64,000 nt of DNA from Harmothoe impar (lineage: Eukaryota > Annelida > Polychaeta > Phyllodocida > Polynoidae): assembly GCA_947462335.1 (NCBI GenBank), contig OX381707.1:21082404-21146403 (forward strand). The letters are read 5' to 3'. The translations under genes were made by a program, and so were the position numbers. Shown here piece after piece: positions 7,461 to 27,196 of the stretch; positions within the stretch are counted from its first letter, which is position 1; every line of letters begins with the position of its first letter. The notes under the pieces are model-generated. The model was not told the DNA's origin, did no database searches, and saw only the letters and a program-made list of their open reading frames with translations.

Positions 7461-7555
7461 TGTGTGCACGAGGGGAGGAGAGGGTTTACAGCTTGCGCTT
7501 ATAGAGCACTACTAGTGGAGGTTTGGATGAGGAGGCTATGACATATGATGTTTGT

Positions 7556-7708: not shown

Positions 7709-8060
7709 CTGCTGCTGCTGCTGCTGCTGTCGGTGCTGCTGCTTGTGCTGCTTGTGCTGCTCATGCAGCAGCTGCTGGCTGCTTGTGCTGCTGCTGCTGC
7801 TGCTGACAGATGCTACTGCTTGTGCTACTGCTCGTGCAGCAGCTGCCAGCAGCTGCTGAAGCAGCTGTCAGCAGCTGCTGGCTGCTTGTGCTGCTGACAA
7901 GGTCATGGGGGCTGCTGCTGACGATGTCACGGATGCTGCTGACAAATGCTACGGCTTGTGCTGCTCGTGCTGCTTGTGCTGCTGAAGTCGCTGCCAGCTG
8001 CTTGTGCTGCACGTGCAGCTGCTGCTGAAGCCGCTGCTAGATGCTGCTGCTTGTGCTGCA
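7709..8060. repeat. degenerate CTG/GCT trinucleotide tract
   Basis: About 350 bp dominated by gctgct/cagcag with 'tgtgct' interruptions. Every frame on both strands gives Ala-, Cys-, Leu-, Gln- or Ser-rich stretches, so these are not evidence for genes. In Element 2 the matching side of the shared core holds the alanine-rich PC4-like gene, so the tract could be a remnant or analogue of such a region, but no PC4-like sequence remains. Confidence 0.7.
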
Positions 8061-8299
8061 CGAGACTGAGTAGCCGCTATTCGGCGTTTCACTCCTTATG
8101 TACCCTGTCCTAGTTAATCCTCTTAAACGGCTGAAAAGGCTCTCTCAGCACAGAGACTCTACTCAATGTAAGAGATCAGTTAAGTAAGTTTTCACATGCC
8201 ACCTGACTACTGCGGGAGGGTTTAGACTTAAGCAGCTTAGTGCACACACGTGTCTGTTAGAAAAGCTACCTGCACACCTGCCTTCCTTTTTCACTAGTA

Positions 8300-8600
8300 T
8301 TTACCCCCTGCCGACTTATAAGGCACCTATACACGCCTTCTTGCTTCTAGAGCTAAGCTGACTGGCAGCTATTTTAAAAGAGAATACTCGTTACCTGTAT
8401 AACGGATAAGGGGGTTATGAGATTAGCGTGTGTATACAAAAAAAAACAAAAAAAAAAGCTACAGGGGGCGCGTGTCTGTCTGTGAGGTAGAGACCATGTG
8501 GTAAGCGACTCAAGTGTAAAACAACAGCACCTCCTCTTGTCGCAGTGAGTGGTGTGGACGGCGGCTGGCTAGTTGAATTTAAGCGTCAGCTTGAAAGATA
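8300..8600 (+). other. core segment shared with Element 2 (24,150-24,760)
   Basis: Same-strand similarity to Element 2: 'cttctagagctaagct', 'gctgtataaaggat'-like and 'gtgtgtatacaaaaaaaa' followed by 'cgtgtctgtctgtgag' and 'gtgagtg...ggccggctagtt'-like text. In Element 2 this is the regulatory interval between divergent genes. The similarity links the two elements by descent beyond their TIRs. Confidence 0.7.
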
Positions 8601-9125
8601 AGGCCAAATAAAAAAAAAGGTTTGTTTCAGGTCACCCGACCAACCCTAGCAAAACAGGGTCGACCCTACGTTTTTTTTTTAAGCAAGTTTGAAGAAAATT
8701 TCATATTTTTATACTTTTTGGGTCATTTTTAGAATTTCCACGGAGGATGGCTAGTACTTTCATGTTAAAAAAATAAAATAAAATAAAATAAAAATCTGAC
8801 CTACCGACTCCAGTCTTTCTGCCCATGTTACCTGAAACATACCTTTTTATTTTTTTTTGGCTTAATCCGTTCACGGGCTGGCGCGTCACACCTGTCGTTA
8901 ATCACCCCCTGTAGTCTTTGTATACACAGGTGACTCGGCTTTATCTCTTCACCAGCTATAATCCCATATACATGTAGCGCACGTTACACTCGTTAATTCT
9001 CTTTTCATGCTGATGGATTAGGGGTGGAAGGGTTCAGGTGAAAAGCGATTTGATTCTCTCTGGAAGAGGGTTGGAGCTCTAGGTGAAAACAAGCTTAGAA
9101 CATCCAGATTAGCTGCTCTCTCGGC

Positions 9126-9133
9126 TATATAAA
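9126..9133 (+). promoter_or_regulatory. candidate TATA box in Element 1
   Basis: TATATAAA lies downstream of the shared core, where Element 2 has TATAAAA (25,044-25,050) ahead of its plus-strand gene. About 140 bases downstream is 'aggGTGAGT', a plausible splice donor (near 9270). The promoter may be a relic; no solid gene follows. Confidence 0.4.
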
Positions 9134-9311
9134 GAGCTTCATTTTTTCTAATCTCTGCCCACTTCGTCTTGTTGTACACTATCAGTCACGAGGCAGACGC
9201 TGGAAGTAGCAGATGTTTGCAGTATGGTTTACACAGAGGTTACCTGCTAATAGGATTTTGTCAGAATAGGGTGAGTTGCTATTAAAATGAACATTTAAAT
9301 GGGTTGTTAAT

Positions 9312-9455
9312 ATGGTATCTGATGTTAATGAGCTAACACCTAACATTGAGGATTATGACCTCCCAGAGGGGCGTCTCGCCAAATTCTCCAGTCTTGACTA
9401 TAGTCTTAACTGTCTAAAGACTGTGGAGCACGTTAATGGGTGGTCTCCTTACTAA
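9312..9455 (+). CDS. small unrecognised ORF, 47 codons
   Basis: An ATG-TAA frame downstream of the TATA box at 9126, starting MVSDVNELTPN and ending NGWSPY. It is acidic near the start and lacks low-complexity bias, but matches no family I know. It ends where the first of the roughly 700-bp repeats begins. It could be a chance frame or the leftover of an exon; I do not see the death-domain pattern found at the equivalent place in Element 2. Confidence 0.15.
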   Translation: MVSDVNELTPNIEDYDLPEGRLAKFSSLDYSLNCLKTVEHVNGWSPY

Positions 9456-9477
9456 TTTCACTTGACCAGGCCGGCAG

Positions 9478-11930
9478 GGTCAACTAGGCTAGGTAATTAC
9501 AACCACAAGGGCGGCTACTCAACATGCAAGTAGACCTACTACTACGAGATTGTCTTTTGACCACTCTGCCGCCGCCTGCTAGTCTGGCGATTACATGCTC
9601 TAGTATAGTTCTCCGCTCTTTTCGTCAGATGACGCCACAATAGGGTTTTTGTACATTTCCACGATACTCGCGAACATTTTAAACGCATAATGACCTATAA
9701 TAAGCAACAAAGCACACTTCTAATATATTGAATATAAGAAACATGTCAACGTTGTGTATTTCTGATAGAATGAGGCAGATTCTTTGAAATATCAACTAAA
9801 CTATAGTGAGATTGAAAATACTACACCATATCTAAAGCGATATAAAAGCTATATAAAGTCAGAACCTCTGACGGATCGGTAGGATCACTCAACCATTCGT
9901 CCTCGAAAGCAACACAGGGTTCCCGTCCAACAGGACTTTGAGCCTTGACGCTTTTGAGGAGGATTGATCTCATGCTGCTTAACATGTGGTGTAATTAATC
10001 AACACCGCGGCCCCTCTTTAGGGGCCACACAATAAACAAAGAATAAAAAAGGGTAGGACTTAGGTTTAAAGTGAATCTCCCAGGATTTTGGCGAGGTCGA
10101 CAAAGGAGGAGATAACAGATTAAACTGCAGGAGACTATACGCAAACCTTGATACTCTCAGAGGGGGAGCTCCATATTGCGGACCTGTGGTCAAGGTAATT
10201 ACAACCACAAGGGTGGCTACTCAACATGCAAGTAGACCTACTACTACGAGATTGTCTTTTGACCACTCTGCTGCCGCCTGCTGGTCTGGCCATTACATGC
10301 TCTAGTGTAGTTCTCCGCTCTTTTCGTCAGATGACGCCACAATAGGGTTTTTGTACATTTCCACGATACTCGCGAACATTTTAAACGCATAATGACCTAT
10401 AATAAGCAACAAAGCACACTTCTAATATATTGAATATAAGAAACATGTCAACGCTGTGTATTTCTGATAGAATTAGGCAGATTCTTTGAAATATCAACTA
10501 AACTATAGTGAGATTGAAAATACTACACCATATCTAAAGCGATATAAAAGCTATATAAAGTCAGAACTTCTCACGGAACGGCATCTGCAACAGATCACTC
10601 AACCAGGTGTCTTGAAATGCCACACAGGGTTCCCGTCCAACAGGACTCTGAGCCTTGTCGCTTTTCAGGAAGGTTTGATCTCATGTTGCTTAACATGTGG
10701 TGTAATTAATCAACACCGCGGCCCCTCTTTAGGGGCCACACAATAAACAAAGAATAAAAAGGGTAGACCTTAGGTTTAAAGTGAATCTCCCAGGATTTTG
10801 GCGAAGTCGACAAAGGGGTAGATAACAGATTAACCTGCAAGAGACTATACGCAAACCTTGATACTCTCAGAGGGGGAGTCCCATTTTGCGGACTTGTGGT
10901 CAGATCTATCCCTTCTAGGGGGCAGGTTGCATGTCGTAAATGTCTACTACAGACATTGGGATATATTGTTAATCTTACTCTAGGGTCTCCATAATTAGAC
11001 CCTGAATCCGTTGTTAAACGGGTGTGAGGGGGTGGTAACTAATACTTATGAGATGTTAGCTTAGTTCATAGTCTCCTTACCAATTTTCACTTGACCAGGC
11101 TGGCAGAGCCAACTAGTCTAGGTAATTATAGCCACAAGGGCGGCTACTCAAGATCTAAGTAGACCTACTACTACGAGATTGTCTTTTTGGTCCTTCTGCT
11201 GCTTAGTTATTACATCCTCCAGTCTAGCTCGCCACACCCTTTGAGCAGCACCACCATTGCCTCGGTAAAAGTGTAGGGTGTGTGCTTTCCACCTTCAGGT
11301 ATCCATAGATTCGATCACTATCACCCCCCTTGAAATGACTTCAGCTGTTAATTAGGGCGTAAAGCCACCAACCAAGTCCCTGTCAAAAGATGTGAATAAC
11401 GAAACGCGCTAGTATAGTTCTCCGCTCTTTCGTCAGATGGTGCCACAATAGGGGTTTTGTACATTCCTACGATGCTCGCGAACATTTCAACGCATAATGA
11501 GCTACATAGGCAACAAAGCGCGCTTCTAATATATTAAAATATAAAAAACAATTCAATATTGTGTATTTCTGATAGAAATGAGGCGGTTTCCTTAAATACC
11601 AACTAAACTATAGCGAGATGAAAAATACCACACCATATCTAAGGCTTTATAAAAAACTATAGAAAGTCAGAACCTCACACGGATCAGCATTCTGTTTGCA
11701 ACGGATCACCCCTGACCCACTGGTCCTCGCATGCCACACACGGCTCTGCCGTGTTTGAGCTTTGAGGTATCACCCATCAAGTGATCCATGCCGCCCAACA
11801 TGAAGCGTAATTAATAGCTGCTGTTGCATAGCACAGTGGCAGCATCTAACTAACTCTAAAGAGTTAGTCGGCCCCTCTTTAGGGGCCACACAATAAACAA
11901 AGAATACCCTGAATCTGGGACCTGCGGGCG
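9478..11930 (+). repeat. three copies of a roughly 700-bp repeat in Element 1
   Basis: 'aggtaattacaaccacaagg' begins copies at about 9490, 10193 and (as 'aggtaattatagcc') 11,121. Each carries 'tacgagattgtctttt', 'cgtcagatgacgccacaata', 'gcgaacattt', 'tatagtgagattgaaaatac', then a GC stem-loop followed by 'acacaataaacaaagaata'. Copies 1 and 2 are very alike; copy 3 is divergent with an insertion. ORFs are short and not conserved between copies. Confidence 0.8.
10008..10043 (+). terminator. stem-loop followed by AATAAA (copy 1; also 10,718 and 11,868)
   Basis: GGCCCCTCTTTAGGGGCC forms a 7-bp stem with a 4-base CTTT loop, followed by 'acacaataaaca'. It is kept in all three 700-bp copies (10,008; 10,718; 11,868) although flanks vary. 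Stem size, T-A closing pair and A-rich tail recall the metazoan histone 3' stem-loop, but the loop differs from consensus and no histone gene is upstream. It may be an RNA 3'-end signal. Confidence 0.4.
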
Positions 11931-12776
11931 AGGGTCCCAACTGTGAAGTCATTATTGGCCACATTGGTAATATCAATTAAAACTTTAGACAACACCCACC
12001 TTAAGTATCATTAACGGACAATATCAATGAACTCAGCATCCGCCTGGTTACCACATTTAGCACCAATTTTACAACTCACAGGGGCCACACTAGCCTCACC
12101 GCGCTTTTTATTGCTCTGCTGATTTCTCCAATCCAAAACATGAGGTATCTTGTCTAGCTGTGAGCTCATTGGGCTAAACAAAAAAATAATCCGTGTTCAG
12201 GTAACATGGTCCAAAAAAAAATAGGGTAGGTCTACGTCGCCTAAGGCGACGAAAGCGCGTCAAAGCGTTTACAGGGTTCGAGCCCGTGAGCTGCTCCTTG
12301 GGGCTGCAAAAAACGCTTAGACACTGAAATCCCATAGGGAAAAAATTTTGGGTTTTTGGACTTTAGGCCTTAATTTGAGGGTGATCCCGGGCTGATAGAA
12401 AAATAATTCTTGGACGAGCGGATAGCTCTGGATCTCTTTTATCTAAAACAGCGAAAAATTGATTATGGTTTCGCCGCAATTCATCCGACGGGGGGTAATC
12501 AGCCCCCCCCTCTGCCAATCAAGGCAGTGAATCTTGGCGACCGTGCGATCACTCACGGCCACCGCGACGAACCGACAGAAGAGATCGGCATCTTAGTATG
12601 ATTCGTGTGACCTACTTAGAGGCTCACACGGTGGAGGTGTGTCCGGCGTTCGGCGCGCTGATTGGCTACTGGTGGGAGGCGCTGTGCCGCGTCAAGAACT
12701 TCACCTATTTGGGGCGGCTGTTAAAGGCGCACTGAGTTGAGGTGCACCTTTAAGCAAGAGCGCGATCCGGCCTAGT

Positions 12777-12856
12777 CTTGCGGACCTCTGTTTAGAGAGT
12801 GTAGCAAGCGGCTATGTCGCGCTCTCCAACCACAGGCTTAACAGTGGTCCGCAAGA
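12777..12856. repeat. cruciform-capable inverted repeat
   Basis: 'tcttgcggacctctgttta' pairs with 'taacagtggtccgcaaga' (two mismatches) around an inner pair 'agagtg...cgctct'. The region 12,400-12,900 is notably GC-richer than its surroundings. Just downstream are short 'acacacagac/cacacaccc' repeats. No gene is supported. Confidence 0.55.
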
Positions 12857-13062
12857 CGCGTGCACACACAGACCGAACAGACACACACAGACCCACACAC
12901 CCACACACTCCTATCAGTGAGACGTCTAGCAGATTCGGGAGAGGCGACCAGGGAGGTACTCTCGGCTAGCGGCCACTAATTGCCTGTTTAGATAAGGCAC
13001 AGAAACAAGGGTGATGACAGACTACGTGTTCAAGCAGCCAACATGCCCTGACACTTGATAAT

Positions 13063-13278
13063 GGATGTGGACCGCTAAATTCGATATGGTGACATGACCA
13101 TTTCTTATAATCGACAAACGACATGAGGTCTAATGACAAGTGACATGAGGCCCAAAAAATCATAGTGACAGGTGACATGAACATTTCTTAAAATCGACAT
13201 GGGATATGAACATTATTAAGTGACATTGTCATGTGACATGGTCATTTTCTAAGATCGACATTCGACATGGGGACCCCC
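13063..13278 (-). repeat. inverted partner of the 7556-7708 GACATG repeat
   Basis: Reverse-complement match to 7556-7708, including 'gtggaccgctaaattcga' and 'cttaaaatcgacatg'. From 13,300 to 14,930 I see only low-quality ORFs and short (acacacccac)n repeats near 14,155-14,190; nothing resembles a known virus or Polinton protein. Confidence 0.7.
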
Positions 13279-14932
13279 TATCCAGAGCCCCTTGATAGAT
13301 GACAGCTGTTGTGTGTAAGAAAAGTGTATGCCTCACAATCAAAAGATGATAAAAGGCTTTATCCCACTCGATGTGGGTTTTGAATCAAATATCAAGGGAT
13401 CAAATATCAGATCGATATTTGACGTCGTCAAGTGATATCTGACGTTGTCAATCACTTTTACTATGTAGTCAAGGTCGTAAAAACAGAGCCCCCTGATTGG
13501 TCAACAGCATGAATGAAAGTTGCATCTCAAACTTTTAATACTCGGTATGGGGCCCCGTGGGGCTGGGACCAATATTTGCAATTTTCGGAAATACTGTCGA
13601 GAATTTCTAGATGGAAACACCTTGTCTGGGGTAATTTGACCTCTACTCTTCGATATTCAAGTAATACTCAAGCTATTCTGACTCTAAACATGAGTAAAAC
13701 GGTCATTTACCAGCGTTATCGGCAGCGCCGACATCAACAACTGCTGATCTCCCTTGGTTACATGACCCAGCTCCGTTTCTAAGGCCTCATGGATCGGGGC
13801 CCTGAAGGGGGATCTGCAGAGGCCCTATATCGGGCCCTAGATATGTACATTATATTAATATCTCATAACTTAATTTACTCTAAAATCTTTTGATAGTTCA
13901 TAACCTTGACCCTTATCTCCTTTTCTCGCGGGATAAAGATAGAATTTGGTTGTTGGCGTGGCCTCTCGTGGATATCTGCTCTTCTCCACGGCACCTCTCG
14001 AGCCCCCTGCGGGGCCTCTAGGGGCTGCTAGACGTCTCTCTGCTATGTAGTGTGGGATGTAAAAGAACCCTTGTCTCGGTAAAAGGGCCAATAGATTCGA
14101 TCACCATCACCGCTCTTGAAATGACCATAGCTGTTAACTAAGGCGTAAAGCAACCCACACACCCACACACCCACACACCCACACATTTTTCTGTATGAGC
14201 CTTCAGACCTCAAGCTGCTCAGTGTACGGGACTAGGTTTTGTCATAGGCCCTACGGACGCTACTCAAGGTAAAAATAAGAGAGCTGTCTCACCATGACAT
14301 TGGGCTGGCTGTAGTTTTTTATGTTTCGGTACCTACAACCAAAACAGCCAGTACCCGCCCCAGGGCTTCATGTCGCACGCGGGAAAAGTATAACGGTGGC
14401 GCCAACTGTCGGAATAGCGGGTACACTACGTCAGTAGTTCTTTTGTTCTCCGCTGAGTGACTGGGCGAAATGTAGTCGGTAGCTCTATTTTCTGTGCACT
14501 GTTCTGTTCATTTTCTACACTTAACACTTAAATAGACCGCGTGTTTGTACAAGCTAAACGTTTTTATCAGTGCAAAAATTAAATAAGCATCGGATAGAAC
14601 ACTAAAAAATGAGAAAGTAATCCAGCGCTTAGTATAAGGCACCAGTTTTATCATGAGACACCGAAAGTCTGGTTTTTTTAAGGTGGATAAGACAGTCGAC
14701 TGAGAGCTCCAAACTAACCAAAAACGTACCAGAGGGAGAACGTACCCGACAGGGCAGGGGCCTTCTACACCCCGGCTCTGATTGATGAGCAAGCGACAAG
14801 TGCTACAGAGGGCCTATTCCTCTTTTGAGGTGGGCCCGAAATTGAACAAAAGAATAAACTCAAGAAAAAGCCTTAGGCTTAAAAGAGTTGTAGATACTGA
14901 TTTTAACGAAGAAGTCACATTCATTAGTTTAC

Positions 14933-15634
14933 AAATAGCCCGTGTAAGTACGCCCATGTCTTGCTTATTTCTCATAGGGTTGTAAGATAGTCACATCATG
15001 ATGCACATCATCATAAACGCGATCATGATACCTTTCATTGTAAGTAGACTCGCCTCTCTGCCCTCTCTTTTAGAGAGGGCAGAGAAGCGAGTCTCACTCT
15101 TAAAAAACCCTGCCCCTCCCCCCCTCCCCCCCTCCCCCCCCCATGCATCTTAAAGAGTGCCCCCCAGAGTGCCCCTCTCCCCCCCTCCTAGAAAAAAAGA
15201 GCCGTATTTTTAAATTATTTTTTAGCAAGCTTTTTCAGCTTGCTTTTTTTTTCTTTTTTTAAATTTATTTATCCATCAAAATCTCAAGTGACTTATTTTG
15301 AAAGCCAACCTAGTAGTCACGTGACCCCCTTAAGTAGGTCACTTCCCGTCACGTGACCTATTTGAATTTCCCGCCAACATGGTGGTCACGTGACCCTCTT
15401 AAGTAGGTCACTTCCGGTCACGTGACCTATTTGAATTTCCCGCCCAAAGGTCACGTGACCGGAAGTAGGTCACTTCCGGTCACGTGACCTATTTGAATTT
15501 CCCGCCAAAAGGGAGGCCTCTCATTGGCTGCTTTTGAATTTCCCGCCAAAAGGGAGGCCTCTGATTGGCTGCAGGTCGATTGAGTAATAAACAGTACTTA
15601 ACTATAGTCCCGTTCCGATACATACTATACTACT
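14933..15634 (-). repeat. Element 1 right TIR
   Basis: Inverted copy of 6223-6933 with only small length differences in homopolymer runs. It has the same array of CACGTG, ETS-like, E2F-like and CCAAT motifs, polypyrimidine run and hairpin. High arm identity suggests either recent insertion or arm homogenisation. Confidence 0.85.
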
Positions 15635-16905: not shown

Positions 16906-17306
16906 ATGTTTTTGACAATACATGAAAATATGACAATCTGACACATGGGCCCCCATCTGGAGTCTTGTGGAAGAACTACATGTCCACATGCGCACAAGGC
17001 TGCGTACTGAGCTCAGTTTGAATAGAGCCTAGCCACCTTAAAAGCGTTTCTGTCTTAGGTTAGCCGGCATGCTGGGGATACCTTATTCCAGAGTTTAATT
17101 CCCCTTACAGTGGGCTTTTACGGTTGCCTAGGTTTACTGTAGTAGCGTACTCAAGCAGACCAGCATCTTTGGTTCTGGTGGTTCAATTTGCTTGTATAAA
17201 TGATAAACCAAACTCTCGTGGGTTATGACCACTATAGGCCCTACCATATATATACATTTGTGTAACATTAGTAACAGCTGCATGTCAAAACGAACATGGA
17301 GATTGG

Positions 17307-18376
17307 CGTAGTATAGTATGTATCGGAACGGGACTATGGTTAACTACTGTTTATTACTCAATCGACATGCAGCCAATCAGAGGCCTCCATTTGGTCACGT
17401 GACCGGAAGTGACCTACTTAGGGGATTAGTTGTGACGTCACGTGACCTAGTTAGCCAATCAGAGGCCGCCATTTGGTCACGTGACCGGAAGTGACGTCAT
17501 ATGACCTACTTATGGACCGGAAGTGACGTCATATGACCTACTTAGGGGACCGGAAGTGACGTCATATGACCTAATTTAGGATCACGTGACCGGAAGTGAC
17601 CTGATGAGTCACTTGACCGGAAGTGACGTCACATGACCTAATGGCCAACCGGAAGTGAGTGACCTCATTGAGGATCACGTGACCGGAAGTGACCTGATTG
17701 ATCACGTGACCGGAAGAAGAAGAAGTGACGTCACGCGACTTAATGAAGAGATGAGCGTCTTTAAGGGGTCACGCGCTTTAAAATGTGATATATATTTTTT
17801 TTGGAGGAGGAGGAGGAGGAGGAGGAGAGGAGGAGAGGAGGAGGAGGAGGAGGAGGAGGAGGAGGAGGAGGAGGCGAGTCTCTTATTTTTTTCGGTAAAC
17901 CAATAAAAAACACCACGATATAAGTTTGTTTTTTCATTTTTATTGTTTTACGAGCGACTGGAAGTGACTTATTGAACTAGGTAGAAGCGTTCTTTAGAGT
18001 GTATAAGGGGGGAGGGGAGGGGAGGGGAGGGGAGGGGAGGGGGGAGGGGGGCCCCTTTAAGATGCATGGGGAGGGGGGCGCTTTTAGGATGCATGGGGCG
18101 GGTGGGGGGGAGGGAGGGAGGGGAGGGGAGGGGAGGGGGGAGGGGGGCACTCTAGGGGGGCGCTCTAAGGGGCGTTTGTCTCTTTTAAGAAAAAAAGAAA
18201 AGAAAAGATTTTAATCGAGAGACACGCTTCTTCCTCTCGAGAGGAAGAAGCGTGTCTCTTCATTTTTTTTTGTTTAGGATCACGTGACTGGAAGCGACGT
18301 CGTCACATGAGTGATGCTTTAAGAGACTGCGCGACTTACTAGTAAAAGAAGACGTATGAAAATAAAAACACAACAA
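17307..18376 (+). repeat. Element 2 left TIR
   Basis: About 1,070 bp. Outer part: two CCAAT boxes, eight 'ccggaagtga' ETS-like sites, six TGACGTCA CRE sites and about seven CACGTG cores, often touching each other. Then (gga)n at 17,803-17,875, 'caataaaaa' on the outward strand, G-rich runs (18,006-18,160) and a hairpin. The first base is C instead of A, the only departure from the AG terminus. ORFs over the polypurine runs (Arg/Glu or Gly/Glu repeats) are artefacts. Confidence 0.85.
18215..18262. repeat. perfect hairpin in Element 2 left TIR
   Basis: 'gagacacgcttcttcctctc' is followed directly by 'gagaggaagaagcgtgtctc', a perfect, loop-free palindrome of about 20 bp per arm. The right TIR lacks it: there 'tgaagagacac' runs straight into the C-rich tract near 26,041-26,055, as if the hairpin was deleted. 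Confidence 0.85.
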
Positions 18377-18390
18377 CAATTTATTTTATT
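18377..18390 (-). terminator. candidate poly(A) signal for PolB
   Basis: The plus-strand text TTTATTTTATTTT gives AATAAA on the minus strand about 95 bases past the PolB stop. It lies at the inner edge of the left TIR. No experimental support. Confidence 0.35.
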
Positions 18391-18478
18391 TTTTTATTTA
18401 TTTTTTTTCAATCTTGATAAACACTCTATTTTTGAAAAGATGCACTCAATCAATCAATAACACGCTTATTATTTTTTT

Positions 18479-21400
18479 TCATATCTCTAAAGGACTCGTT
18501 GTCACACCGTCAGAATGCACGCGACGCTTATAATACAAGTAGCGCACGCTGTCTTTCTCTATGGTGTAGGTGACCATTTTGTTTCGCACCACTTTGAAAT
18601 TTCTATTTACAGCAATGAGAGTTTTTCGTTGGCGAAGAACATCCAAGAAGTCGTCTGGTTCCTTAGGGTTTTGTTTCTTCTGTACGCCTTTTGCACTCCA
18701 TTTTTTGGATTTTCTTTCACCGGTGCCGCTGACTCGATCGTAGCAAATGTAAGTCTTAGGGTTGAGACTTAGGATCCCGTCACCTTCCCACTCCGCTTTC
18801 ATAAGCCCCGAAGTTCTCAGATCGTGAAGGTACCGTCTCTCACAACATCCGCCGGGCGGCGGACACCATTCTCGCACTCTTTCCGTTTTTGTCTTCACGA
18901 AAAGCTCTAAGTGATCGTCGCACACCGCTGTCGGAATCCACTTTCGTTTCTCTCTGAAGTACGTCTCTCTCAGGCGAGGTTTGACTAGGTCATCCAACGT
19001 GTCACCGCTGAGAGCCATGTAAAGACTGTCGGTGTCCATTTGACAAAGGGCATAATCGCGCCGATCGACGAATCTATCCAAGAAGTCGTATGTGAACTCT
19101 AACATTTTCAACTTCGCGTACTGGTATACCATGAACCCTATTTGAATAGGGAGGTTGTTCTTGACTGTTTTCGGTTGTAGTTCGACTTCAAACAGATCAG
19201 AACTCAACTCGGACGCCTTTTTGAAGCGCCACGAATTGGCCAATAGTTCGAACTTCCGACTGTCAGTGTATCTCACCGCCGTGTGTTTTTCTTTGTTGCA
19301 GATTGTTTTACCGTACGTGGCGTTTCCCATTAACTTGTAACAGTCTGACAGAATTTTCTCGTTCTCGTTCACGTCGCCACGTTTTCGCGCCGCCGTTACT
19401 TCGTCCGCGAAACCGGCAAAGGAGCGTTTAGGTAGGTATTCTACGACCAGCTGCACTTTGGTGACTATCAAACCGTGCTCTAAATACCACTTGAGAAGCA
19501 ACGTTCCCAAGAGAATATTTTTTCCGTGGTAACTCCCTATCAGACATCTCTGAGGCGTGTTCAACAGCTTTTCTTCCTGCGCAAAGTCTGACATGTGAGG
19601 TCCTATGTCTGATATTGAAACGGACGCGTTCTTGAAAACGGGGGTCATTTCTTCGAAGTAGTCTCGTAGGTGAGGCGGCGTAGTGATGTCCACTTGAACT
19701 AAACCGAACATTTTCCCGTCTTTCACAGCGGAAAGGATGTCGCTCTCGCTCATTGCGTTTCGAGACACTTTCAAAGCGTCAACCTTCCAGCGTTGTTGGG
19801 AGGCCTTAACCCGCTCATCTCGACGCTTCATCTCTCTCCATTCGCACTCCCACAGGACGACCAGCTTGTGACCTAGCGCTTTCAAGTAAGCGCTTACTCT
19901 AGTCGTTCTGTCGCGTCTCTCCTCCCTCAGTGAAGCGCACTGATATCGGTGCGACGGTATGCACTCGTGAGCGTGCAACCAACACCCGTGAAACTGGAAA
20001 ACCGTATTAGAGGCCGCGTGAAACCCGTCCACGCGAATTCTTTGACAGCCTACAACCATCTCGCCGCCGTTCAAAGCGTGGCGCAGTTTCACGTCGCGGT
20101 CGTGCTCTACGAAGCGTAACCACTCCAAAGCGCTGTGAGAGTTTCTTTGCCTAATTTCGGGCTTGAACTCGGTCTCAGGTCGTCTCACCGCGTAATAGCC
20201 CGTGCAGTGCGCTTCGCTCATGCAGCGCAAGTACAGAGAGTTAGCATCTAGTCCTAGGATGTGTTGGCACAGTCTCGCTTCTTCGCCGTACTTGTGCTCC
20301 CTTATCCGCGTGGTGCCCTTCTCGTGAAATCTATGGAAGATGATGGAAGGACCGCCGACTAGATTTTCTTTGATCAGAGCGTGGAGGACGGCGTCGAACT
20401 GGGGGAACGTTGTGAACGCGTCTTCTAGGTTTTGGAAGAGGAACCGTAAAGTCAAACCGGCGAGAGAAACCCCGTCTTTCAACATGTCAATGCCGCGATC
20501 TTGGAAAAATTTAGCGTGATTTTTCAGAGCTTCTATGAAAGGTTTGACGTCTTTGTTGTTGTAGTGGATCAAGTAATCTCCCATAGTTTGCATCTTCTCG
20601 TCGGACCAAACTTTCTGACATGCGGCGTAGTCGGATTCGGACATTTTGACGCCCGTCAGTTCGCTGTCAAAAGCCGATCTCGGTGGCAGTGTTCTGTTTG
20701 CCAGTTTCCTGGTAGACGTCATCCATTCGTAAGGAAAGTGACCTTTCTCTTCGTTCCTGGTGAAAGCTCGCAAATAGGTCACGTAGTTGTAACCGGGTGC
20801 CAAATAGTTGACTACGTGCAAGAAAACCGTGTGCTGTGTGTAAACCCCCAAGTATTGATTGCTTCTCTTTATGACGCTGAATTCTTGGTTTCTTCGGTCT
20901 CCGGAGGCAAAGAACGAGTGAAGGCGTATTTTGATCAGGTTCAAGTCGTAACGCCCCGAGTTGAAGCCCACGACTGGAGCTTGACGGATGTATCTCAGAA
21001 GCCGCTTCTTCAGTTGAACTAACGGGTGTCTGGTCTGAGCCGCAGCGAAGCCGCCTGGAGAAGGGGTGAACGTCGCCTCCTCCAGCAGGAGAGCTTCACC
21101 TATCGCCGCATCTAACTTCGCTAAGGTCGGTCGGTAAAGTTCTAGCACAGCTTCCCCGATGACTTTGGCGTTCTCGTTTATGTGATTTAAAACTCGGTCC
21201 AACAAGGGGTCGGAATCTGCGTCGGATTCTCTGACGAAGCAGACTGGCCCCTCCCACCACGGAAAGTCGGATGCGACGCTAGCCGACAAAGGGACGTGAT
21301 CCCACAGCAGGGACACGTGTTCCGTCAACGGTTCTCTGCACGGTCTGAAGAAAGCCTCGAAATCGAAGGCGATCTTGTAAGGGTAGATTCCGGAATGTCC

Positions 21401-22633
21401 GTCGGGAGGAAAAATGGAGAAGTCTGCTAGCGCTTCGAAAATCGTTCTCGAATTTTGGTAGATGCCACCTACGTAGCGCAACTTGACTTGTCGGCAAGAG
21501 GAAAGCTGGTTCCTGTGTCTCTTCAGCAAGAACTCGGTGGTGAACGCCGCCTTACACTTGCAACATTCGTATATGCCCGCGTACGCGTTGAAGTCCGTGA
21601 CGAGAGAGACGTGCAAACCGCCTTTCGCCGTCAGGTGTAGGTTGACTTTACCTCGGGCGGCCAGAGTTCTGGAAGGCGGTCTGATCAGAGTAACGCGTCT
21701 TCTCAACTTCCGCCCCGGCACCTGACGCGACGTGGTGTAAACCGCTATTTGTACGTCAAACAAGTTCTCTAACGCGGGTAAGTCGCGGATGTTCAAACGC
21801 GGAAAGGATTCAGGTGTGGCAGCGGGACAGAACTGACGTAACAAATCTGAAGCGCGCTTGCTGGTGTTGTATAAGTGAAAGGAAATGCAGCGGAAGACGC
21901 AGAGGTTGTCCTTGTTGGGAAAATCTAACACGCCGCTTCTCTTTCCAACTCGACCGGCCTGAGTGATCCTACCGCCTATGGGAAATTCCCCCGGTCCCAT
22001 GTAAACGCAAATGTTCAAATTGGTAGGAAAAAGAACGTGCCACTTGGTGTCAGCGTCGCAAAGTTTCCGTACTTCCTCGCAAGCGACGGTGTTTTCCATC
22101 TTTGAGAGGAGCTCTTCCAAAGTTTCTGAATTAGTTATAGTAGGGAGCGGTTGTATGAGAGTTGCGTTGTTCTGGGAGGCGTGAAAGTAGCGCAGTTTGC
22201 TCTTGTCTTCTCTGTGTTGTAAGAGTAAGCCTACCGAGAAACCCACTTTGTATCTGAATCTTTGTGTCAAGTGAATGCGACGCATAGTATCTACAGCGTC
22301 ACTCAACTCGCCGGTTGGTAGCCTGAAGTTTGTTACACTCACGCGAGTCCCGTGCATCCTGACGCCCGTTTGTATCGCAGGCCAATTCGCCGTGAACGTT
22401 TCCTCACCGTTCGGTACAGCACATATGCGCGGAGGGATGGTCACCCCGTCCAGAGATTCGCGTCGACAGGCGATCTTTCGGCAATCGCCTTCGCCGCATA
22501 GAGGGCAAAACTTAGGTATTACTCTACATTTTTCTATGTGTCTCTCGTGGTTGTACGGTCTTTTAAAAAATTTGAAACACTTTTCGCAGACGTACTGCGT
22601 CATGTTTTTTTTTGTTTTTTTTTGTTTTTTCAC
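18479..22633 (-). CDS. family-B DNA polymerase (Polinton-like, DNA_pol_B_2 type)
   Basis: An intact 1,384-codon frame. Seen: C2H2 finger at 16-36 (CEKC...H..H..C) and a Cys cluster at 43-56; a CVFRCISFH segment at 245-253; a second finger-like CCKC...H...C at 357-380. Exonuclease motifs: Exo I FDFE (423-426), Exo II FNSGRYD (557-563), Exo III YNNKD (691-695). Polymerase motifs: A LDANSLY (795-801), B KLMGNATYGK (1100-1109), C MDTDS (1199-1203). FHGCWLHAHEC (881-891) matches the GC-H-C insert typical of Polinton-class polymerases. All catalytic Asp/Glu are present, so the enzyme looks active. Protein-primed synthesis from the TIR ends is the family rule and is inferred. Residues 1-10 come from an A-rich run; Met11 (22,603) is the likelier start. 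Confidence 0.93.
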   Translation of the reverse strand: MKKQKKTKKNMTQYVCEKCFKFFKRPYNHERHIEKCRVIPKFCPLCGEGDCRKIACRRESLDGVTIPPRICAVPNGEETFTANWPAIQTGVRMHGTRVSVTNFRLPTGELSDAVDTMRRIHLTQRFRYKVGFSVGLLLQHREDKSKLRYFHASQNNATLIQPLPTITNSETLEELLSKMENTVACEEVRKLCDADTKWHVLFPTNLNICVYMGPGEFPIGGRITQAGRVGKRSGVLDFPNKDNLCVFRCISFHLYNTSKRASDLLRQFCPAATPESFPRLNIRDLPALENLFDVQIAVYTTSRQVPGRKLRRRVTLIRPPSRTLAARGKVNLHLTAKGGLHVSLVTDFNAYAGIYECCKCKAAFTTEFLLKRHRNQLSSCRQVKLRYVGGIYQNSRTIFEALADFSIFPPDGHSGIYPYKIAFDFEAFFRPCREPLTEHVSLLWDHVPLSASVASDFPWWEGPVCFVRESDADSDPLLDRVLNHINENAKVIGEAVLELYRPTLAKLDAAIGEALLLEEATFTPSPGGFAAAQTRHPLVQLKKRLLRYIRQAPVVGFNSGRYDLNLIKIRLHSFFASGDRRNQEFSVIKRSNQYLGVYTQHTVFLHVVNYLAPGYNYVTYLRAFTRNEEKGHFPYEWMTSTRKLANRTLPPRSAFDSELTGVKMSESDYAACQKVWSDEKMQTMGDYLIHYNNKDVKPFIEALKNHAKFFQDRGIDMLKDGVSLAGLTLRFLFQNLEDAFTTFPQFDAVLHALIKENLVGGPSIIFHRFHEKGTTRIREHKYGEEARLCQHILGLDANSLYLRCMSEAHCTGYYAVRRPETEFKPEIRQRNSHSALEWLRFVEHDRDVKLRHALNGGEMVVGCQRIRVDGFHAASNTVFQFHGCWLHAHECIPSHRYQCASLREERRDRTTRVSAYLKALGHKLVVLWECEWREMKRRDERVKASQQRWKVDALKVSRNAMSESDILSAVKDGKMFGLVQVDITTPPHLRDYFEEMTPVFKNASVSISDIGPHMSDFAQEEKLLNTPQRCLIGSYHGKNILLGTLLLKWYLEHGLIVTKVQLVVEYLPKRSFAGFADEVTAARKRGDVNENEKILSDCYKLMGNATYGKTICNKEKHTAVRYTDSRKFELLANSWRFKKASELSSDLFEVELQPKTVKNNLPIQIGFMVYQYAKLKMLEFTYDFLDRFVDRRDYALCQMDTDSLYMALSGDTLDDLVKPRLRETYFREKRKWIPTAVCDDHLELFVKTKTERVREWCPPPGGCCERRYLHDLRTSGLMKAEWEGDGILSLNPKTYICYDRVSGTGERKSKKWSAKGVQKKQNPKEPDDFLDVLRQRKTLIAVNRNFKVVRNKMVTYTIEKDSVRYLYYKRRVHSDGVTTSPLEI

Positions 22634-22829
22634 TCAGTTACCAATTAAAAAAAAAAAAAAAAAAAAAGTTTTTCCCAACTACTTAGCCGTCTAACTATCT
22701 ATCTATCTATCAATCTATCTGTCTATCTATCTATCAATCTATCTGTCTATCTATCTATCTGTCTGCTGTCTGTCTCATACAGCGTACGTCAAACGCTGTG
22801 TGTGTGCGCGCGTGAGCGTTGAGCGTCTC
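22634..22829. repeat. A-run and TCTA/TCTG microsatellite between PolB and PC4-like gene
   Basis: Contains a roughly 20-base A-run (22,648-22,668) and an imperfect (tcta)n/(tctg)n array at about 22,692-22,775. No TATA box for PolB was found, so it may be transcribed with the upstream PC4-like gene or from an unseen promoter. Confidence 0.7.
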
Positions 22830-23645
22830 TCATTCCAAATTTATACCGAGAAATTTGAGAATAATCTCTGTTTTGTCATCCAACTCTTTGAGCGCTCTGG
22901 CGGACAGCGTCACCCCCTGCTGTGTGGGTTTTTTGTCAGGACCTTCGTACTTGCGCACGTGGATGAGGTTCTTACCGCTGTAGTAGCTCACAGCTGCGTA
23001 CACTTCGCCCTCCTCATCCAGCACTGCGAACCAGGGGGTGTGATTAGGTCTTCCTTGTGCGGACGCTGTGTCGCGTATGCGCACCACTGCGCGGATATCG
23101 GCGATGCGCGCTATTAGCTCGCGCAGCGCGTCGGCAGTGAAGTGCACTCGCTTGCTTCTGGTCAGAGACGCCTCTTTCACCTGGCCGTCTTTTGTGTAGC
23201 GCGGCCTCCTAGACAATCTAGCCACGTCCTCCCAGATCTCCAGCGTCAAAGTCCCGTCTAAGCAGAACTCTAACCCGAGAGGACGGGAGGTTTTCTCTGC
23301 TTCTTCTGGTCCATCTCCTTCTTTTTCTTGTATTTTTCTCTTCTTAGTAGGCCTTGTTGTTCTGGAACTCACCTTAGAACGTTTCAGACCCGCAAGAAGA
23401 GTAACACCATCAGCGTGAGCTGAATCAGCAGCAGAACCGATAACAGGAGCAGCGTCAGCGCTGGTGGTATCCGAGGCCTCGTTGTTGGAACAGAGCAGCC
23501 ACACGCCGTCGGTGCTGAGTGTAGCGGTAGAAGATGAAGCGCCGCCGCCCTCGTAAGGTGGCGGTGAGGGCAGTCGCCACGGACCGGACGCGCTACCAGT
23601 GGAAGTGAGGTCGAAAGCTGTGGAAGAGGGGAGCCGAAAAAACGT

Positions 23646-23678
<33 letters not shown>

Positions 23679-23895
23679 CGCAACAGTAGCAGGCGCAGCA
23701 GCCTCAGCAGGCGCAGCAGTAGCAGGCGCAGCAGTAGCAGGCGCAGCAGCAGCAGCCGCAGCACGAGGATCACCAGCAGCAGCAGCAGCAGCAGCAGGCG
23801 GGGCAGCAGTAGCAGCCGCAGCGCACTTAGCAGCAACGTGTACCGTCGCGAGTGTAACAACGTCGCTAGCACGGCGACTACTACCAGTAGTACTA

Positions 23896-23927
<32 letters not shown>

Positions 23928-24125
23928 GCTGCGAGCGCTCGCTACAGCGGGAGGGTGATAAGACCAAGCGGTTGCGGCGGTAGTCTCATTTTCAGTAGCA
24001 AGAGGAGGCACTGACGCTAAACGAGCGCTGTTCCGCGTAGTCTTCTTGTTCTTGAACTTGCTTAGATCCTTGGACGGCGCTAGGTGTTGTCTTTTGCTCA
24101 TGGTGGTGACTGTAGAGAGCAGCAA
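22830..24125 (-). CDS. Ala-rich nuclear protein with two PC4-like ssDNA-binding domains
   Basis: 431 codons; Met9 (24,101, MSKRQHLAPSK) is the likelier start given the TATA box 60 bases upstream. Layout: basic head (10-36), Ser-rich run (65-75), Ala-rich region (98-160) encoded by a GCT/GCC tract, PPPY at 188-191, Ser/Thr/Asp-rich linker, NLS-like PTKKRKIQ (259-266), then two C-terminal repeats (about 282-348 and 372-428). Repeat 2 has GKNLIHVRKYEGPDKKPTQQ then GVTLSARALKEL; repeat 1 has TLTLEIWED...KRVHFTADALREL. The strand-strand-helix plan, with a polar loop before a G/K-V-S/T-L-turn, resembles the PC4/p15 coactivator fold, which binds ssDNA. Beside PolB it is best read as a replication ssDNA-binding protein; the assignment is inference from pattern only. 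Confidence 0.72.
23636..23835. repeat. GCA/GCT tract encoding polyalanine
   Basis: Imperfect (agc)n on plus, read as Ala on minus. Length is likely unstable between copies. Opposite-strand frames here also give Ala or Leu runs and are shadows. Confidence 0.8.
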
Positions 24126-24160
24126 AAGACTGAGTGAGTGAATGGGGCTTTCCAGGCCCC

Positions 24161-24167
24161 TTATATA
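24161..24167 (-). promoter_or_regulatory. TATA box of the PC4-like gene
   Basis: TATATAA on the minus strand, 60 bases upstream of the Met9 codon at 24,101, a spacing that would give a short leader. The core matches 'tatacacgccttcttgcttctagagc' in Element 1 at about 8328. Confidence 0.5.
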
Positions 24168-24185
24168 CGCCTTCTCGCTTCTAGA

Positions 24186-24575
24186 GCTAAGCTACTTACT
24201 GCCCTGTTCAGCTGCCGCCGGCTGGCCGGCGGCCATTCACAAAGAGAAACTAAAGACATAATGCATGACGTTTTCAGCTGGATCCCTTTCCCCCCTTTTG
24301 AGAGATCGACTGTCATGAGCTAAGCTACTTACCACCCTGTTCAGCAATTCAACGCGCATTAGCTGTATAAAGGATTAAGCAGTTGCTGCCGCCGACTGAC
24401 CGGCGGCCATTCACAAAGAGAAACAAAAGACATAAGGCATGACGTTTTCAGCTGGATCCCTTTCCCCTCTTTTTTGAGAGATCCACTGTCATGAGCTAAG
24501 CTACTTACCACCCTGTTCAGCAATTCAACGCGCATTAGCTGTATAAAGGATTAACGGTCATGAGCTTAGAGTGTG
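24186..24575 (+). repeat. tandem duplication in the divergent promoter region
   Basis: 'gagctaagctacttac' starts three units (24,186; 24,318; 24,494). Each full unit has a 'gccggcggccattcacaaag' block, 'gacgttttcagctggatccctttcc' and 'gctgtataaaggatta'. The repeated block lies between the divergent PC4-like and death-domain genes, so it is a candidate bidirectional control region; extra TATAAA boxes at about 24,363 and 24,541 face the plus strand. Confidence 0.75.
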
Positions 24576-25043
24576 TATACAAAAAAAACTACAGGAGGCG
24601 TGTGGCGTGAAGCAGGACCCCCTAAGACGAGCGTGTCTGTCTGTGAGTAGAGGCGTGTGCATGTGGTGAGCGACTTAAGTGTAAGACAAAAAAAAATCAC
24701 CGCCTCCTGCCGTGGTGAGTAGACCGGGCCGGCCGGCGGCGGCCGGCTAGTTCAATAGGGGTGACAGCTGACTAAGGCTGTGCATGAAAAAATCCGATTT
24801 TCACCTGACCTCTGACGTTTGTTACAATGAATGTCAGAGGGAGAGAGAGGCGTCCTCAGGTAGGGGGTAGGAGGTAAGGCTATGGATGAGGAAAAAACAC
24901 CATTTTCAGCTGGTCTCCACCGATAGCGATGACATACCCCTCGTCATCTAAGCTCTTAAGGAGCGGAGCGGCTGAAAAAGCGTCATGCGGACAGGTCGCT
25001 AGACAGCTGGAGTGCTGTTGGAAATAGGATTAAACTCCCTCTG

Positions 25044-25050
25044 TATAAAA
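25044..25050 (+). promoter_or_regulatory. TATA box of the death-domain gene
   Basis: TATAAAA about 106 bases ahead of the ATG at 25,156, in the same position as the Element 1 TATA at 9126. The leader ends in (ccacca/ccgccg)n at 25,108-25,141. The ATG context 'gagATGG' is favourable. Confidence 0.55.
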
Positions 25051-25110
25051 GCTCTGATTTCTGTTGGAAAAAAACCATATCGCCTCTGACCACAGTAACG
25101 TCTACTACCA

Positions 25111-25142
<32 letters not shown>

Positions 25143-25155
25143 AAGACGAGACGAG

Positions 25156-25677
25156 ATGGCTCAAGCTATTCCACTTTCAAGCTCGCCTTCACCTCCTTGT
25201 CCACCTGAAAAAAAGTTAATGCGGCTTGACGACGTGAGACGCGCGGGGCAGACCGATGGGGAGAATAGAGAGGTAGGACAGCGGCGCTTAGCATATAACG
25301 ACGCCTTGCTTCGTCAACTAGGTAAAGAGTTGAGCGGATCTTGGAGAGAGTTGGGCAGTAGCTTAAAAGTTACCGCCGCCCGTATGGATGCTCTAGTAGA
25401 GCGCAGTGTCAAGACACCGGAGGAGCTGTGTACGGCGATGTTCCGAGTCTGGTGGGGTGAAACCCCGCATCGTCATAGATGGGGAGAGCTCGGTCGCGTC
25501 TTCACCCGCATTAGACGAGTGGAACTGTTGGCTCAGTGGATGACCCTTCTCCACAGGCAGGGGTTGGATTTCGAAAACCCCGACTCGCGCGCGATGCATA
25601 AGCACTTGGGCGCCCTCGGCAGACGCCTAGGTAGCAGGTGGAAAGAGGTGGGGGACCATTTAAAAATTGTCGCCTGA
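25156..25677 (+). CDS. death-domain protein, second domain truncated by a frameshift
   Basis: 173 codons. After a Pro/Ser head, residues 51-127 show a death-domain pattern: LLRQLGKELSGSWRELGSSL, then a MDAL helix, then a W-rich MFRVWW helix, then WGELGRVFTRI and a closing LLAQWMTLL helix. At 148 a second domain begins (LGALGRRLGSRWKEVGDHL) but stops at a TGA at 25,675. The rest of that domain is read one frame over from 25,667 to 25,897. The shift lies at or near the A5 run 25,662-25,666. Death domains mediate homotypic contacts in apoptosis and innate signalling; a copy in a replicating element suggests interference with host death signalling, which is inference. Base use resembles PolB, not the host flanks. 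Confidence 0.7.
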   Translation: MAQAIPLSSSPSPPCPPEKKLMRLDDVRRAGQTDGENREVGQRRLAYNDALLRQLGKELSGSWRELGSSLKVTAARMDALVERSVKTPEELCTAMFRVWWGETPHRHRWGELGRVFTRIRRVELLAQWMTLLHRQGLDFENPDSRAMHKHLGALGRRLGSRWKEVGDHLKIVA

Positions 25678-25897
25678 GAGGTTAGATAAGATCGCTGAAG
25701 AATGTGAATACGGAGGAAGTCTCGCTGAGTGGGCCTTCCGAGTGTTGAAAATGTGGCAAGCTGAAGCTGACGGTGCCGGCAGTACGCCTTTTGAACTCCT
25801 TCGAGTGTTGACTGAGGACATGGGAAAGTTTGACCTCGGCATCGCGATATTACTTGACTTTATCAAGCAAGAAACAACGAGAACGACGGACATGTGA
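25667..25897 (+). pseudogene. shifted-frame remainder of the second death domain
   Basis: This frame lacks its own ATG at the start and opens SPERLDKIAEECEYG, the expected helix 3 region of a death domain, followed by AFRVLKMWQAEA (compare AMFRVWW in domain 1), FELLRVLTEDM and ILLDFI. It therefore continues the preceding gene, off by one base. The stop TGA (25,895-25,897) touches the right TIR. A natural mutation, sequencing error in a homopolymer, or ribosomal frameshifting would all fit. Confidence 0.65.
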
Positions 25898-25898
25898 A

Positions 25899-26893
25899 TT
25901 GTTGTGTTTTATTTTCATACGTCTTCTTTATTAGTAAGTAAAAAAAATATTATAACAATTAAGTCGCGTGTCCTCTTAAAGTGTCACTTCCTCCAGTTGC
26001 AGCTGATCGCCTCATCGAGGCATGTGATAAACAAAAAAAATGAAGAGACACCCCTCCCCCCCTCCCCACCCTCCCCTCCCCCCCTCCCTCCCCCCTCCCC
26101 TCCCCCCCTCCCCCCCCTCCCCTCCCCTCCCCTCCACTCCCCTCCCCTCCCCCCTTATACACTCTAAAGAATGCTTCTACCTAGTTCAATAAGTCACTTC
26201 CAGTCGCTCGTAAAACAATAAAAATGAAAAAACAAACTTATATCGTGGTGTTTTTTATTGGTTTACCGAAAAAAATAAGAGACTCGCCTCCTCCTCCTCC
26301 TCCTCCTCCTCCTCCTCCTCCTCCTCCTCCTCCTCCTCCTCCTCCTCTCCTCCTCTCCTCCTCCTCCTCCTCCTCCTCCTCCTCCTCCTCCTCCTCCAAA
26401 AAAAATATATATCACATTTTAAAGCGCGTGACCCCTTAAAGACGCTCATCTCTTCATTAAGTCGCGTGACGTCACTTCTTCTTCTTCCGGTCACGTGATC
26501 AATCAGGTCACTTCCGGTCACGTGATCCTCAATGAGGTCACTCACTTCCGGTTGGCCATTAGGTCATGTGACGTCACTTCCGGTCACGTGACTCATCAGG
26601 TCACTTGCGGTCACGTGATCCTAAATTAGGTCATATGACGTCACTTCCGGTCCCCTAAGTAGGTCATATGACGTCACTTCCGGTCCATAAGTAGGTCATA
26701 TGACGTCACTTCCGGTCACGTGACCAAATGGCGGCCTCTGATTGGCTAACTAGGTCACGTGACGTCACCACTAATCCCCTAAGTAGGTCACTTCCGGTCA
26801 CGTGACCAAATGGAGGCCTCTGATTGGCTGCATGTTGATTGAGTAATAAACAGTAGTTAAGCATAGTCCCGTTCCGATACATACTATACTACT
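25899..26893 (-). repeat. Element 2 right TIR
   Basis: Inverted relative of 17,307-18,376, about 75 bp shorter overall. It lacks the left arm's hairpin, but its (ctc)n tract (26,284-26,397) is longer than the matching (gga)n. ETS, CRE, E-box and CCAAT motif order is preserved, with a few base changes. 'caataaaaa' at 26,216 may serve as poly(A) signal for the plus-strand gene. Confidence 0.85.
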
Positions 26894-27196
26894 GATTGGC
26901 AACTAGTATTATAAGTGCTGGGTTAATGTACCATTCAAATAAATAAATACAGGAGTGCTCAATCCGGCCACTAGAGTAGGTGGAATAGTTTTGCTCCCCT
27001 CCTTGGCTACATTACAGGTTAGCTGTTCGAATAGAAATATTATAAGCAAATAATAAACATCTCTTCCCAGTCGATATGACTTAAAGCAGTACTGACCTGT
27101 ACCTGCAATGACGGAAGGTGAAATTTGAAAGGCAAAACATGGAAAGAAAGGTTGTCAGTTCATCAATTGATCATGCATTTTTAGACATATTCTTAA

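What the first reader, a model, noticed from the sequence alone, without database searches (positions are those of the whole stretch)
17307..26893. A minimal three-gene PolB element without integrase or capsid genes
Element 2 has all structural Polinton marks (6-bp TSD, about 1-kb TIRs, Polinton-class PolB with intact Exo and Pol motifs) yet the rest of its coding space holds only a PC4-like ssDNA-binding protein and a death-domain protein. Known Polintons carry integrase, ATPase, protease and capsid genes. The combination PolB + tandem PC4-like + death domain is not one I know. It could be a replication-only satellite or one part of a split genome, using another element's integrase.
Basis: partly seen in the sequence, partly recalled or inferred. 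Interest (0 to 1): 0.9.

Follow-up and report, generated by a model that had tools for sequence, protein, structure and literature searches.

The report
Capsid-less, integrase-less three-gene Maverick family
A repeated virus-like DNA element in an animal-type genome has kept its own DNA-copying enzyme, a DNA-binding-type protein and a cell-death-signalling-type protein, but shows no genes for a virus shell or for inserting itself, so it probably relies on a larger relative for those jobs.

Summary
E2 (17307-26893) has (AGT)2-type Maverick ends (first left base mutated), a 6-bp duplication, 0.75-0.8-kb inverted repeats and three genes: Polinton-type DNA polymerase, PC4-like protein, death-domain protein. 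It is not a one-off deletion: the host genome holds at least 33 loci with this terminal repeat. Of the 32 others I opened 14: PolB and death-domain gene in 14/14, PC4 in 13/14. Of 89 ORFs of 170 codons or more there, 84 lie in or over these genes; the other 5 are in an insert or a flank. All 6 other copies with both ends known have 6-bp duplications. Variants shared between copies are mostly synonymous (12 S, 6 N; p about 1e-4), single-copy ones nearer neutral. Best reading: a self-replicating Maverick satellite family, integrated (perhaps packaged) in trans. No helper integrase was seen; I sent no integrase search, and later genome searches did not complete. Also new: a Vsr-like nuclease domain inside PolB, arrays of ETS/CRE/E-box-type sites in the repeats, and a young neighbour (E1) with the same ends and no recognisable gene.

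The parts
17301..17306 (.). left 6-bp target site duplication GATTGG
26894..26899 (.). right 6-bp target site duplication GATTGG
17307..18058 (+). left terminal inverted repeat; (AGT)2-type Maverick terminus with first base changed to C
   Evidence: end motif as described in PMC8097293
26110..26893 (-). right terminal inverted repeat, ends ...ACTACT
17373..17733 (.). array of CCGGAAGT x8, TGACGTCA x6, TCACGTGA x6 and CCAATCA x2 (ETS, CRE, E-box, CCAAT types), mirrored in the right TIR
   Evidence: the factor names are recalled
18479..22603 (-). Polinton-type family-B DNA polymerase (ATG at 22603; residues numbered from 22633)
   Evidence: matches in 14 of 14 other copies opened
21887..21910 (-). 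vOTU-like protease Cys motif (DNLCVFRC, aa 242-249), as in domain D2 of polinton pPolBs
   Evidence: and PMC11071308; assigned by eye, no profile hit
19781..20032 (-). Vsr-like endonuclease domain inside PolB between Pol motifs A and B (aa 868-951)
   Evidence: phrog_13076 E 3.5e-5, PDB Vsr E 0.004, TIGR00632 E 0.0024 but far under its cut-off; no Vsr match in Pfam
22830..24101 (-). PC4-like protein with long low-complexity N-terminal part
   Evidence: C-terminal domain in 13 of 14 other copies
22881..23000 (-). PC4 domain match
25156..25677 (+). death-domain protein, first domain and start of a second
   Evidence: matches in 14 of 14 other copies
25664..25897 (+). rest of the second death domain, in another frame in this copy
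6223..15634 (.). neighbour element E1: same terminal ~86 bp, TSD AACACC, no recognisable gene

Best explanation
A multi-copy family of reduced Mavericks that lives as a self-replicating satellite. Shown: at least 33 loci with this TIR; the same three genes in the copies opened; Maverick-type (AGT)2 ends with 6-bp duplications; signs of purifying selection on variants shared between copies. Inferred: PolB starts copying at the ends from its own N-terminal terminal-protein region, freed by the vOTU-like protease; the PC4-like protein coats the displaced single strand; factors binding the ETS/CRE/E-box-type arrays in the TIRs drive transcription and perhaps replication; the death-domain protein modulates host death or innate signalling while DNA accumulates; the integrase of a full Maverick that recognises the shared (AGT)2 ends inserts the copies, and possibly its capsid carries them. 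E1, with the same ~86-bp ends and no recognisable gene, would be a second-order parasite of the same machinery.
For: Copies and gene content. Six of 6 other paired copies have equal 6-bp flanks (one lies in a TA repeat and says little). Ends equal the commonest vertebrate Maverick end motif (PMC8097293). TIR divergence is 2-10 mismatches per ~500 in six other copies, 5 of 501 in E2 and 1 of 501 in E1: recent activity. Shared variants 12 S / 6 N against 78 S / 173 N for single-copy variants. E1 shares the terminal 86 bp (95%) and short intergenic stretches with E2 but no recognisable gene, so it was probably moved in trans.
Against: No helper Maverick or integrase was seen; no integrase-family search was sent, and the later genome searches did not complete. 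Shared variants are few (18), recurrent mutation could add to them, and for PolB alone shared against single gives only Fisher p 0.06. In the window copy all three Pfam matches lie just under their cut-offs. Exact motif strings are not kept in every copy: of 14, Pol B 10, vOTU Cys 10, Exo III 12, the others 13 or 14. Replication, ssDNA binding and death signalling are inferred from domains only. Only 14 of 32 other loci were opened, 8 from one end; 40 of 3618 first-look candidates were scored.
Confidence: 0.62

Rival explanations
1. E2 is a deletion product of a full Maverick, amplified passively.
For: Maverick termini and TSD; no integrase or capsid genes seen; internal deletions do occur in this family (copy C8b lacks PC4 and the PolB N-terminus).
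Against: Same three-gene layout in the 14 copies opened; shared variants mostly synonymous; PC4 and death-domain genes are not among the core vertebrate Maverick genes named in PMC8097293, and the genes of E2 point outward, as that paper reports for the cane toad elements but not for most.
Confidence: 0.1
2. One segment of a split, bidnavirus-like virus: this part carries replication genes, other (AGT)2-ended parts carry capsid and integrase.
For: Bidnaviruses carry a polinton-derived PolB (PMC11071308) and have a bipartite genome (recalled; the words occur in a reference title seen). E1 shows that unlike interiors can share ends in this genome.
Against: No partner part with capsid or integrase genes was seen (none was searched for by family); E1 has no recognisable gene.
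Confidence: 0.12
3. The element moves itself: the Vsr-like nuclease domain in PolB, not a DDE-type integrase, cuts ends or target.
For: Three libraries give the same residues; no other nuclease is recognised in the element; the two Vsr strings tested stay in 13 of 14 copies each.
Against: 6-bp duplications and (AGT)2 ends are those of integrase-bearing Mavericks; homing endonuclease domains inserted in polinton PolBs are reported and read as intein invasions (PMC11071308), so the domain may have no part in integration; the NCBIfam score is far under its cut-off and Pfam has no Vsr match.
Confidence: 0.08

Closest known systems
Vertebrate Mavericks/Polintons (PMC8097293; part 1 of 7 of the main text and passages read)
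   Same: (AGT)2//(ACT)2 ends, 6-bp TSD, TIR length in range (46-1447 bp), intronless Polinton-type polymerase gene
   Different: 12.7-24.6 kb with eight core genes (seven in one frog) including integrase and capsid; paired E2-type copies are about 9.5-10.6 kb (one 24.9 kb with an insert) with three genes pointing outward
Polintons without MCP, PRO and ATPase (9 elements in a set of 72, PMC4028283; part 1 of 4 and passages read)
   Same: loss of the morphogenesis genes
   Different: the text read does not say whether those nine keep integrase; no PC4 or death-domain gene is mentioned in what I read
Cytoplasmic linear plasmids (PMC11071308; passages read)
   Same: polinton-derived pPolB replicons without morphogenesis genes
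   Different: E2 copies are chromosomal insertions with TSDs in a 1.5-Gb genome
Transpovirons and virophages (PMC3671162 abstract and passages, PMC11071308 passages)
   Same: depend on another virus
   Different: transpovirons have other replication proteins, virophages their own capsid; no death domain mentioned in what I read

Membership tests
Maverick/Polinton | (AGT)2 or similar end motif, TIRs, 6-bp TSD | tested here: met
   motif
Maverick/Polinton | protein-primed family-B polymerase | tested here: inconclusive
   Exo/Pol motifs and vOTU-type Cys motif by eye, DNA_pol_B_2 E 7.5e-6 just under cut-off; terminal-protein domain and tree not tested (1384 aa exceeds the folding limit; protein database off)
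Maverick/Polinton | RVE-type integrase | tested here: not met
   no Pfam match in E2 (right end 4 of 6 frames); in 14 other copies, 5 of 89 ORFs of 170 codons or more lie apart from the three genes, 4 in an insert and 1 retrotransposon piece (4 of the 5 scanned with Pfam)
Maverick/Polinton | ATPase, protease, major and minor capsid proteins | tested here: not met
   same calls; very diverged capsid proteins are hard for Pfam, but no long ORF outside the insert is left to hold one
PC4 family | PC4 domain above Pfam cut-off | tested here: inconclusive
   24.3 bits against 25; 21.4 in another copy; model mean pLDDT 51, four strands then helix in the C-terminal half (PC4 order as recalled), fold search uninformative
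Death-domain proteins | Death domain above Pfam cut-off | tested here: met
   31.0 and 27.8 bits in the two other copies scanned; 20.6, under the cut-off, in the window copy; fold search uninformative
Satellite of a helper virus | a helper supplying integrase or capsid | not tested
   no integrase or capsid family search was sent; PolB, PC4, death-domain and E1-TIR genome searches did not complete

The most novel reading that the evidence does not exclude
A two-tier Maverick ecosystem in one genome: a capsid-less, integrase-less satellite that replicates itself and disarms or redirects host cell death with a tandem death-domain protein, rides on the integrase and capsid of full Mavericks, and is itself parasitised by gene-less elements of about the same size (~9.5 kb) and the same ends.
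Probability: 0.35. Interest if true: 0.88.

Novelty: new variant of a known kind. Interest (0 to 1): 0.74.

Why it matters
Self-synthesising elements are described as carrying polymerase plus integrase. A family under apparent purifying selection that keeps only the replication part would be a chromosomal counterpart of linear plasmids and an animal-type counterpart of virophage-like satellites. It makes the question of whether Mavericks still integrate, and perhaps package, other DNA in trans directly testable. A death-domain gene kept as one of only three genes suggests that handling host cell death is nearly as basic to such a replicon as copying its DNA.

Tried and rejected
Relatives outside the host: the protein database was off. 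Viral-contig scans with PolB (27, 32), PC4, the death-domain ORF (114), the terminus and Vsr-type patterns (43, 44) gave no relative. Of the four loci, the matches in L001 and L002 lie in overlapping shadow frames; L003 and L004 were only compared by tblastn; the best hit of any was E 0.003. Genome-contig scan: none. Phages: one weak hit over aa 868-936, the Vsr-like part, E 5e-3. Rfam: no match in the window.

Rejected or left open: tandem PC4. A death-domain remnant in E1 (13470-13607, minus) scored higher than any of 200 simulated sequences but covers only 46 aa and contains a stop: a lead only. E1's trinucleotide tract against the PC4 Ala tract runs in the opposite orientation, so low complexity. 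Structure models without an alignment had mean pLDDT 51 and 68 and gave no usable fold match. The 24.9-kb copy on C351 is not a full Maverick in what I saw: it is the same element with an insert inside PolB that carries a reverse transcriptase; three further ORFs of 170-190 codons in that insert are unidentified, two of them scanned without a Pfam match. An ORF near copy C8b is a retrotransposon piece. Pairwise dN/dS against the window copy (130; pooled PolB 0.71, PC4 0.48, death domain 0.59) was not relied on, because frame breaks in some copies (for example PC4 of C1b, death domain of C1a) and changes private to the window copy inflate it. The shared-against-single count (132) left out codons with fewer than 8 sequences (window copy included), more or fewer than two states, double changes or poorly matching surroundings.

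Literature: eleven text searches failed or timed out. One answered (112: 129 papers hold 'polintons' from 2019 on, 30 listed; listing only). I therefore make no claim that this is absent from print. PMC12721341 was opened as an outline only (120) and not used.
Full report
WHAT IS THERE. E2 spans 17307-26893. The flanks GATTGG/GATTGG form a 6-bp target site duplication, and the arms 17308-17827/26373-26892 and 17835-18051/26110-26326 are 99% and 98% complementary. The right end reads ...ACTACT and the left end CGTAGTATAG, so the ends are of the type (AGT)2//(ACT)2 with the first left base changed. PMC8097293 (part 1 of 7 read) names this as the most common end motif of vertebrate Mavericks, together with 6-bp duplications. 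The neighbour E1, 6223-15634, has duplication AACACC and the same type of ends.

GENES. PolB (18479-22633, minus, ATG at 22603) is open over 1384 codons; the longest stop-free run in 200 simulated interiors was 287. It has Exo I-III, Pol A, B and C strings (motif names recalled) and a DNA_pol_B_2 match just under the cut-off. An N-terminal DNLCVFRC string sits where polinton polymerases carry a vOTU-type protease between the terminal-protein and polymerase domains (PMC11071308, passages); this assignment is by eye. Between Pol motifs A and B, residues 868-951 match Vsr-type endonucleases in three libraries: phrog_13076 E 3.5e-5, solved Vsr structures E 0.004 and TIGR00632 E 0.0024, though at 18 bits against a cut-off of 98; Pfam shows no Vsr match there. 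The same paper notes diverse homing endonuclease domains inserted in polinton polymerases and reads them as intein invasions, so the domain may be a passenger. The second gene (22830-24101, minus) ends in one PC4-like domain (24.3 bits against a cut-off of 25); a second PC4 copy is not supported. The third gene (25156-25677, plus) has a death domain and the start of another (internal repeat, 0 of 2000 shuffles), whose remainder lies in a different frame here. In the two other copies whose death-domain ORF I scanned, both domains are in one ORF and pass the Pfam cut-off. The rest of E2 has no convincing Pfam match: the centre and the left end were scanned in six frames, the right end in four of six; the few matches listed have E 0.003-0.1 and lie under their cut-offs.

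OTHER COPIES. Search of the host genome (1.51 Gb, 736 contigs, unnamed) with E2's left 994 bases was answered once: 40 of 3618 first-look candidates were scored, and my reading of the rows gives 33 loci including E2, seven of them with facing repeats. Counts are lower bounds. I opened 14 of the 32 others as pieces: six with both ends known, eight from one end. PolB matches in 14 of 14, the death-domain ORF in 14 of 14 and the PC4 domain in 13 of 14; the exception, C8b, lacks the stretch between the death-domain gene and the PolB N-terminus. Of 89 ORFs of 170 codons or more in these pieces, 55 are in frame with one of the three genes, 29 overlap them in another frame or strand, and 5 lie apart. 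Of those 5, four are in an insert that splits PolB in the C351 copy (one is a reverse transcriptase; two of the other three have no Pfam match; one was not scanned) and one is a retrotransposon piece beside C8b. The paired copies span 9.5-10.6 kb apart from C351 at 24.9 kb (coordinates). All six have equal 6-bp flanks; the one in a TA repeat says little. Decay is visible: several copies have in-frame stops or frame breaks, and exact motif strings are kept in 10 to 14 of 14 copies.

SELECTION AND AGE. TIR pairs differ by 2-10 of about 500 bases in six other copies, 5 of 501 in E2 and 1 of 501 in E1. Variants seen in a single copy are nearer neutral (PolB, other copies: 58 synonymous, 127 non-synonymous; opportunity 3.28 to 1). 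Variants shared by two or more copies are mostly synonymous: PolB 7 S/5 N, death domain 4 S/1 N, PC4 1 S/0 N. Pooled, 6 of 18 are non-synonymous against a neutral 0.764, p about 1.3e-4; single-copy variants also depart mildly (173 of 251, p 0.004). For PolB alone, shared against single gives Fisher p 0.06. The numbers are small and copies are not independent, but the pattern is that of genes used while the family spread and then decaying in place.

CIS SEQUENCES. Each E2 TIR holds 7-8 CCGGAAGT, 6 TGACGTCA, 6-7 TCACGTGA and 2 CCAATCA sites, with four copies of CCGGAAGTGACGTCA (0 in 1000 simulations of the left TIR); the composite does not occur in either element's interior, in E1's TIRs or in the rest of the window. 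Six other copies keep 3-4 composites in the first 501 bases of each TIR. I read these, from recalled knowledge, as ETS, CREB/ATF, USF/TFE-type and NF-Y sites; adenovirus terminal regions are the functional analogue I have in mind (recalled).

E1. It shares with E2 the terminal ~86 bp (95%), short subterminal units and a few intergenic stretches. Its interior has no Pfam match at E 0.1 in six frames, yet its TIRs are nearly identical, so something in this genome recently moved an element with these ends and no recognisable gene. That is the best indirect evidence for a trans-acting integrase.

MECHANISM. Shown: structure, copies, gene set, pattern of variants. Inferred: protein-primed copying by PolB, strand coating by the PC4-like protein, modulation of death or innate signalling by the death-domain protein, and integration, perhaps packaging, by a full Maverick. 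The last step is the weakest: no helper was seen. I sent no integrase-family search, and the later genome searches I sent, which might have shown relatives with more genes, did not complete.

NOVELTY. Capsid-less Polintons are known: in a set of 72, nine without a capsid gene also lacked protease and ATPase genes (PMC4028283). Cytoplasmic linear plasmids derive from (proto)polintons by loss of the morphogenetic module (PMC11071308). What is added here is a multi-copy chromosomal family that also lacks a recognisable integrase, keeps a death-domain gene as one of three, and shares its ends with a neighbour that has no recognisable gene. Literature searching mostly failed, so absence from print is not claimed. 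Hence 'new variant of a known kind'.

Noticed in passing
6223-15634: E1, a 9.4-kb element with Maverick ends, TSD AACACC, nearly identical TIRs and no recognisable gene, only 1.67 kb from E2 and nearly the same length.
   Followed up: partly
13470-13607: A 46-aa stretch of E1 (minus strand) resembles the second death domain (score above all 200 simulations, contains a stop); possible remnant.
   Followed up: partly
19781-20032: Vsr-like endonuclease domain inside PolB between Pol motifs A and B, the place of the TPR1 subdomain of protein-primed polymerases (place recalled).
   Followed up: partly
17373-17733: Composite ETS/CRE-type and E-box-type arrays in the TIRs, kept in other copies; could be promoter or replication enhancer.
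   Followed up: partly
32086-34542: ORFs with a GIY-YIG and a weak reverse transcriptase match between inverted 125-bp repeats: a Penelope-like element by content (name recalled).
   Followed up: no
24211-24554: Two 176-bp tandem copies (95%) upstream of the PC4 gene; E1 shares nearby intergenic bits.
   Followed up: no
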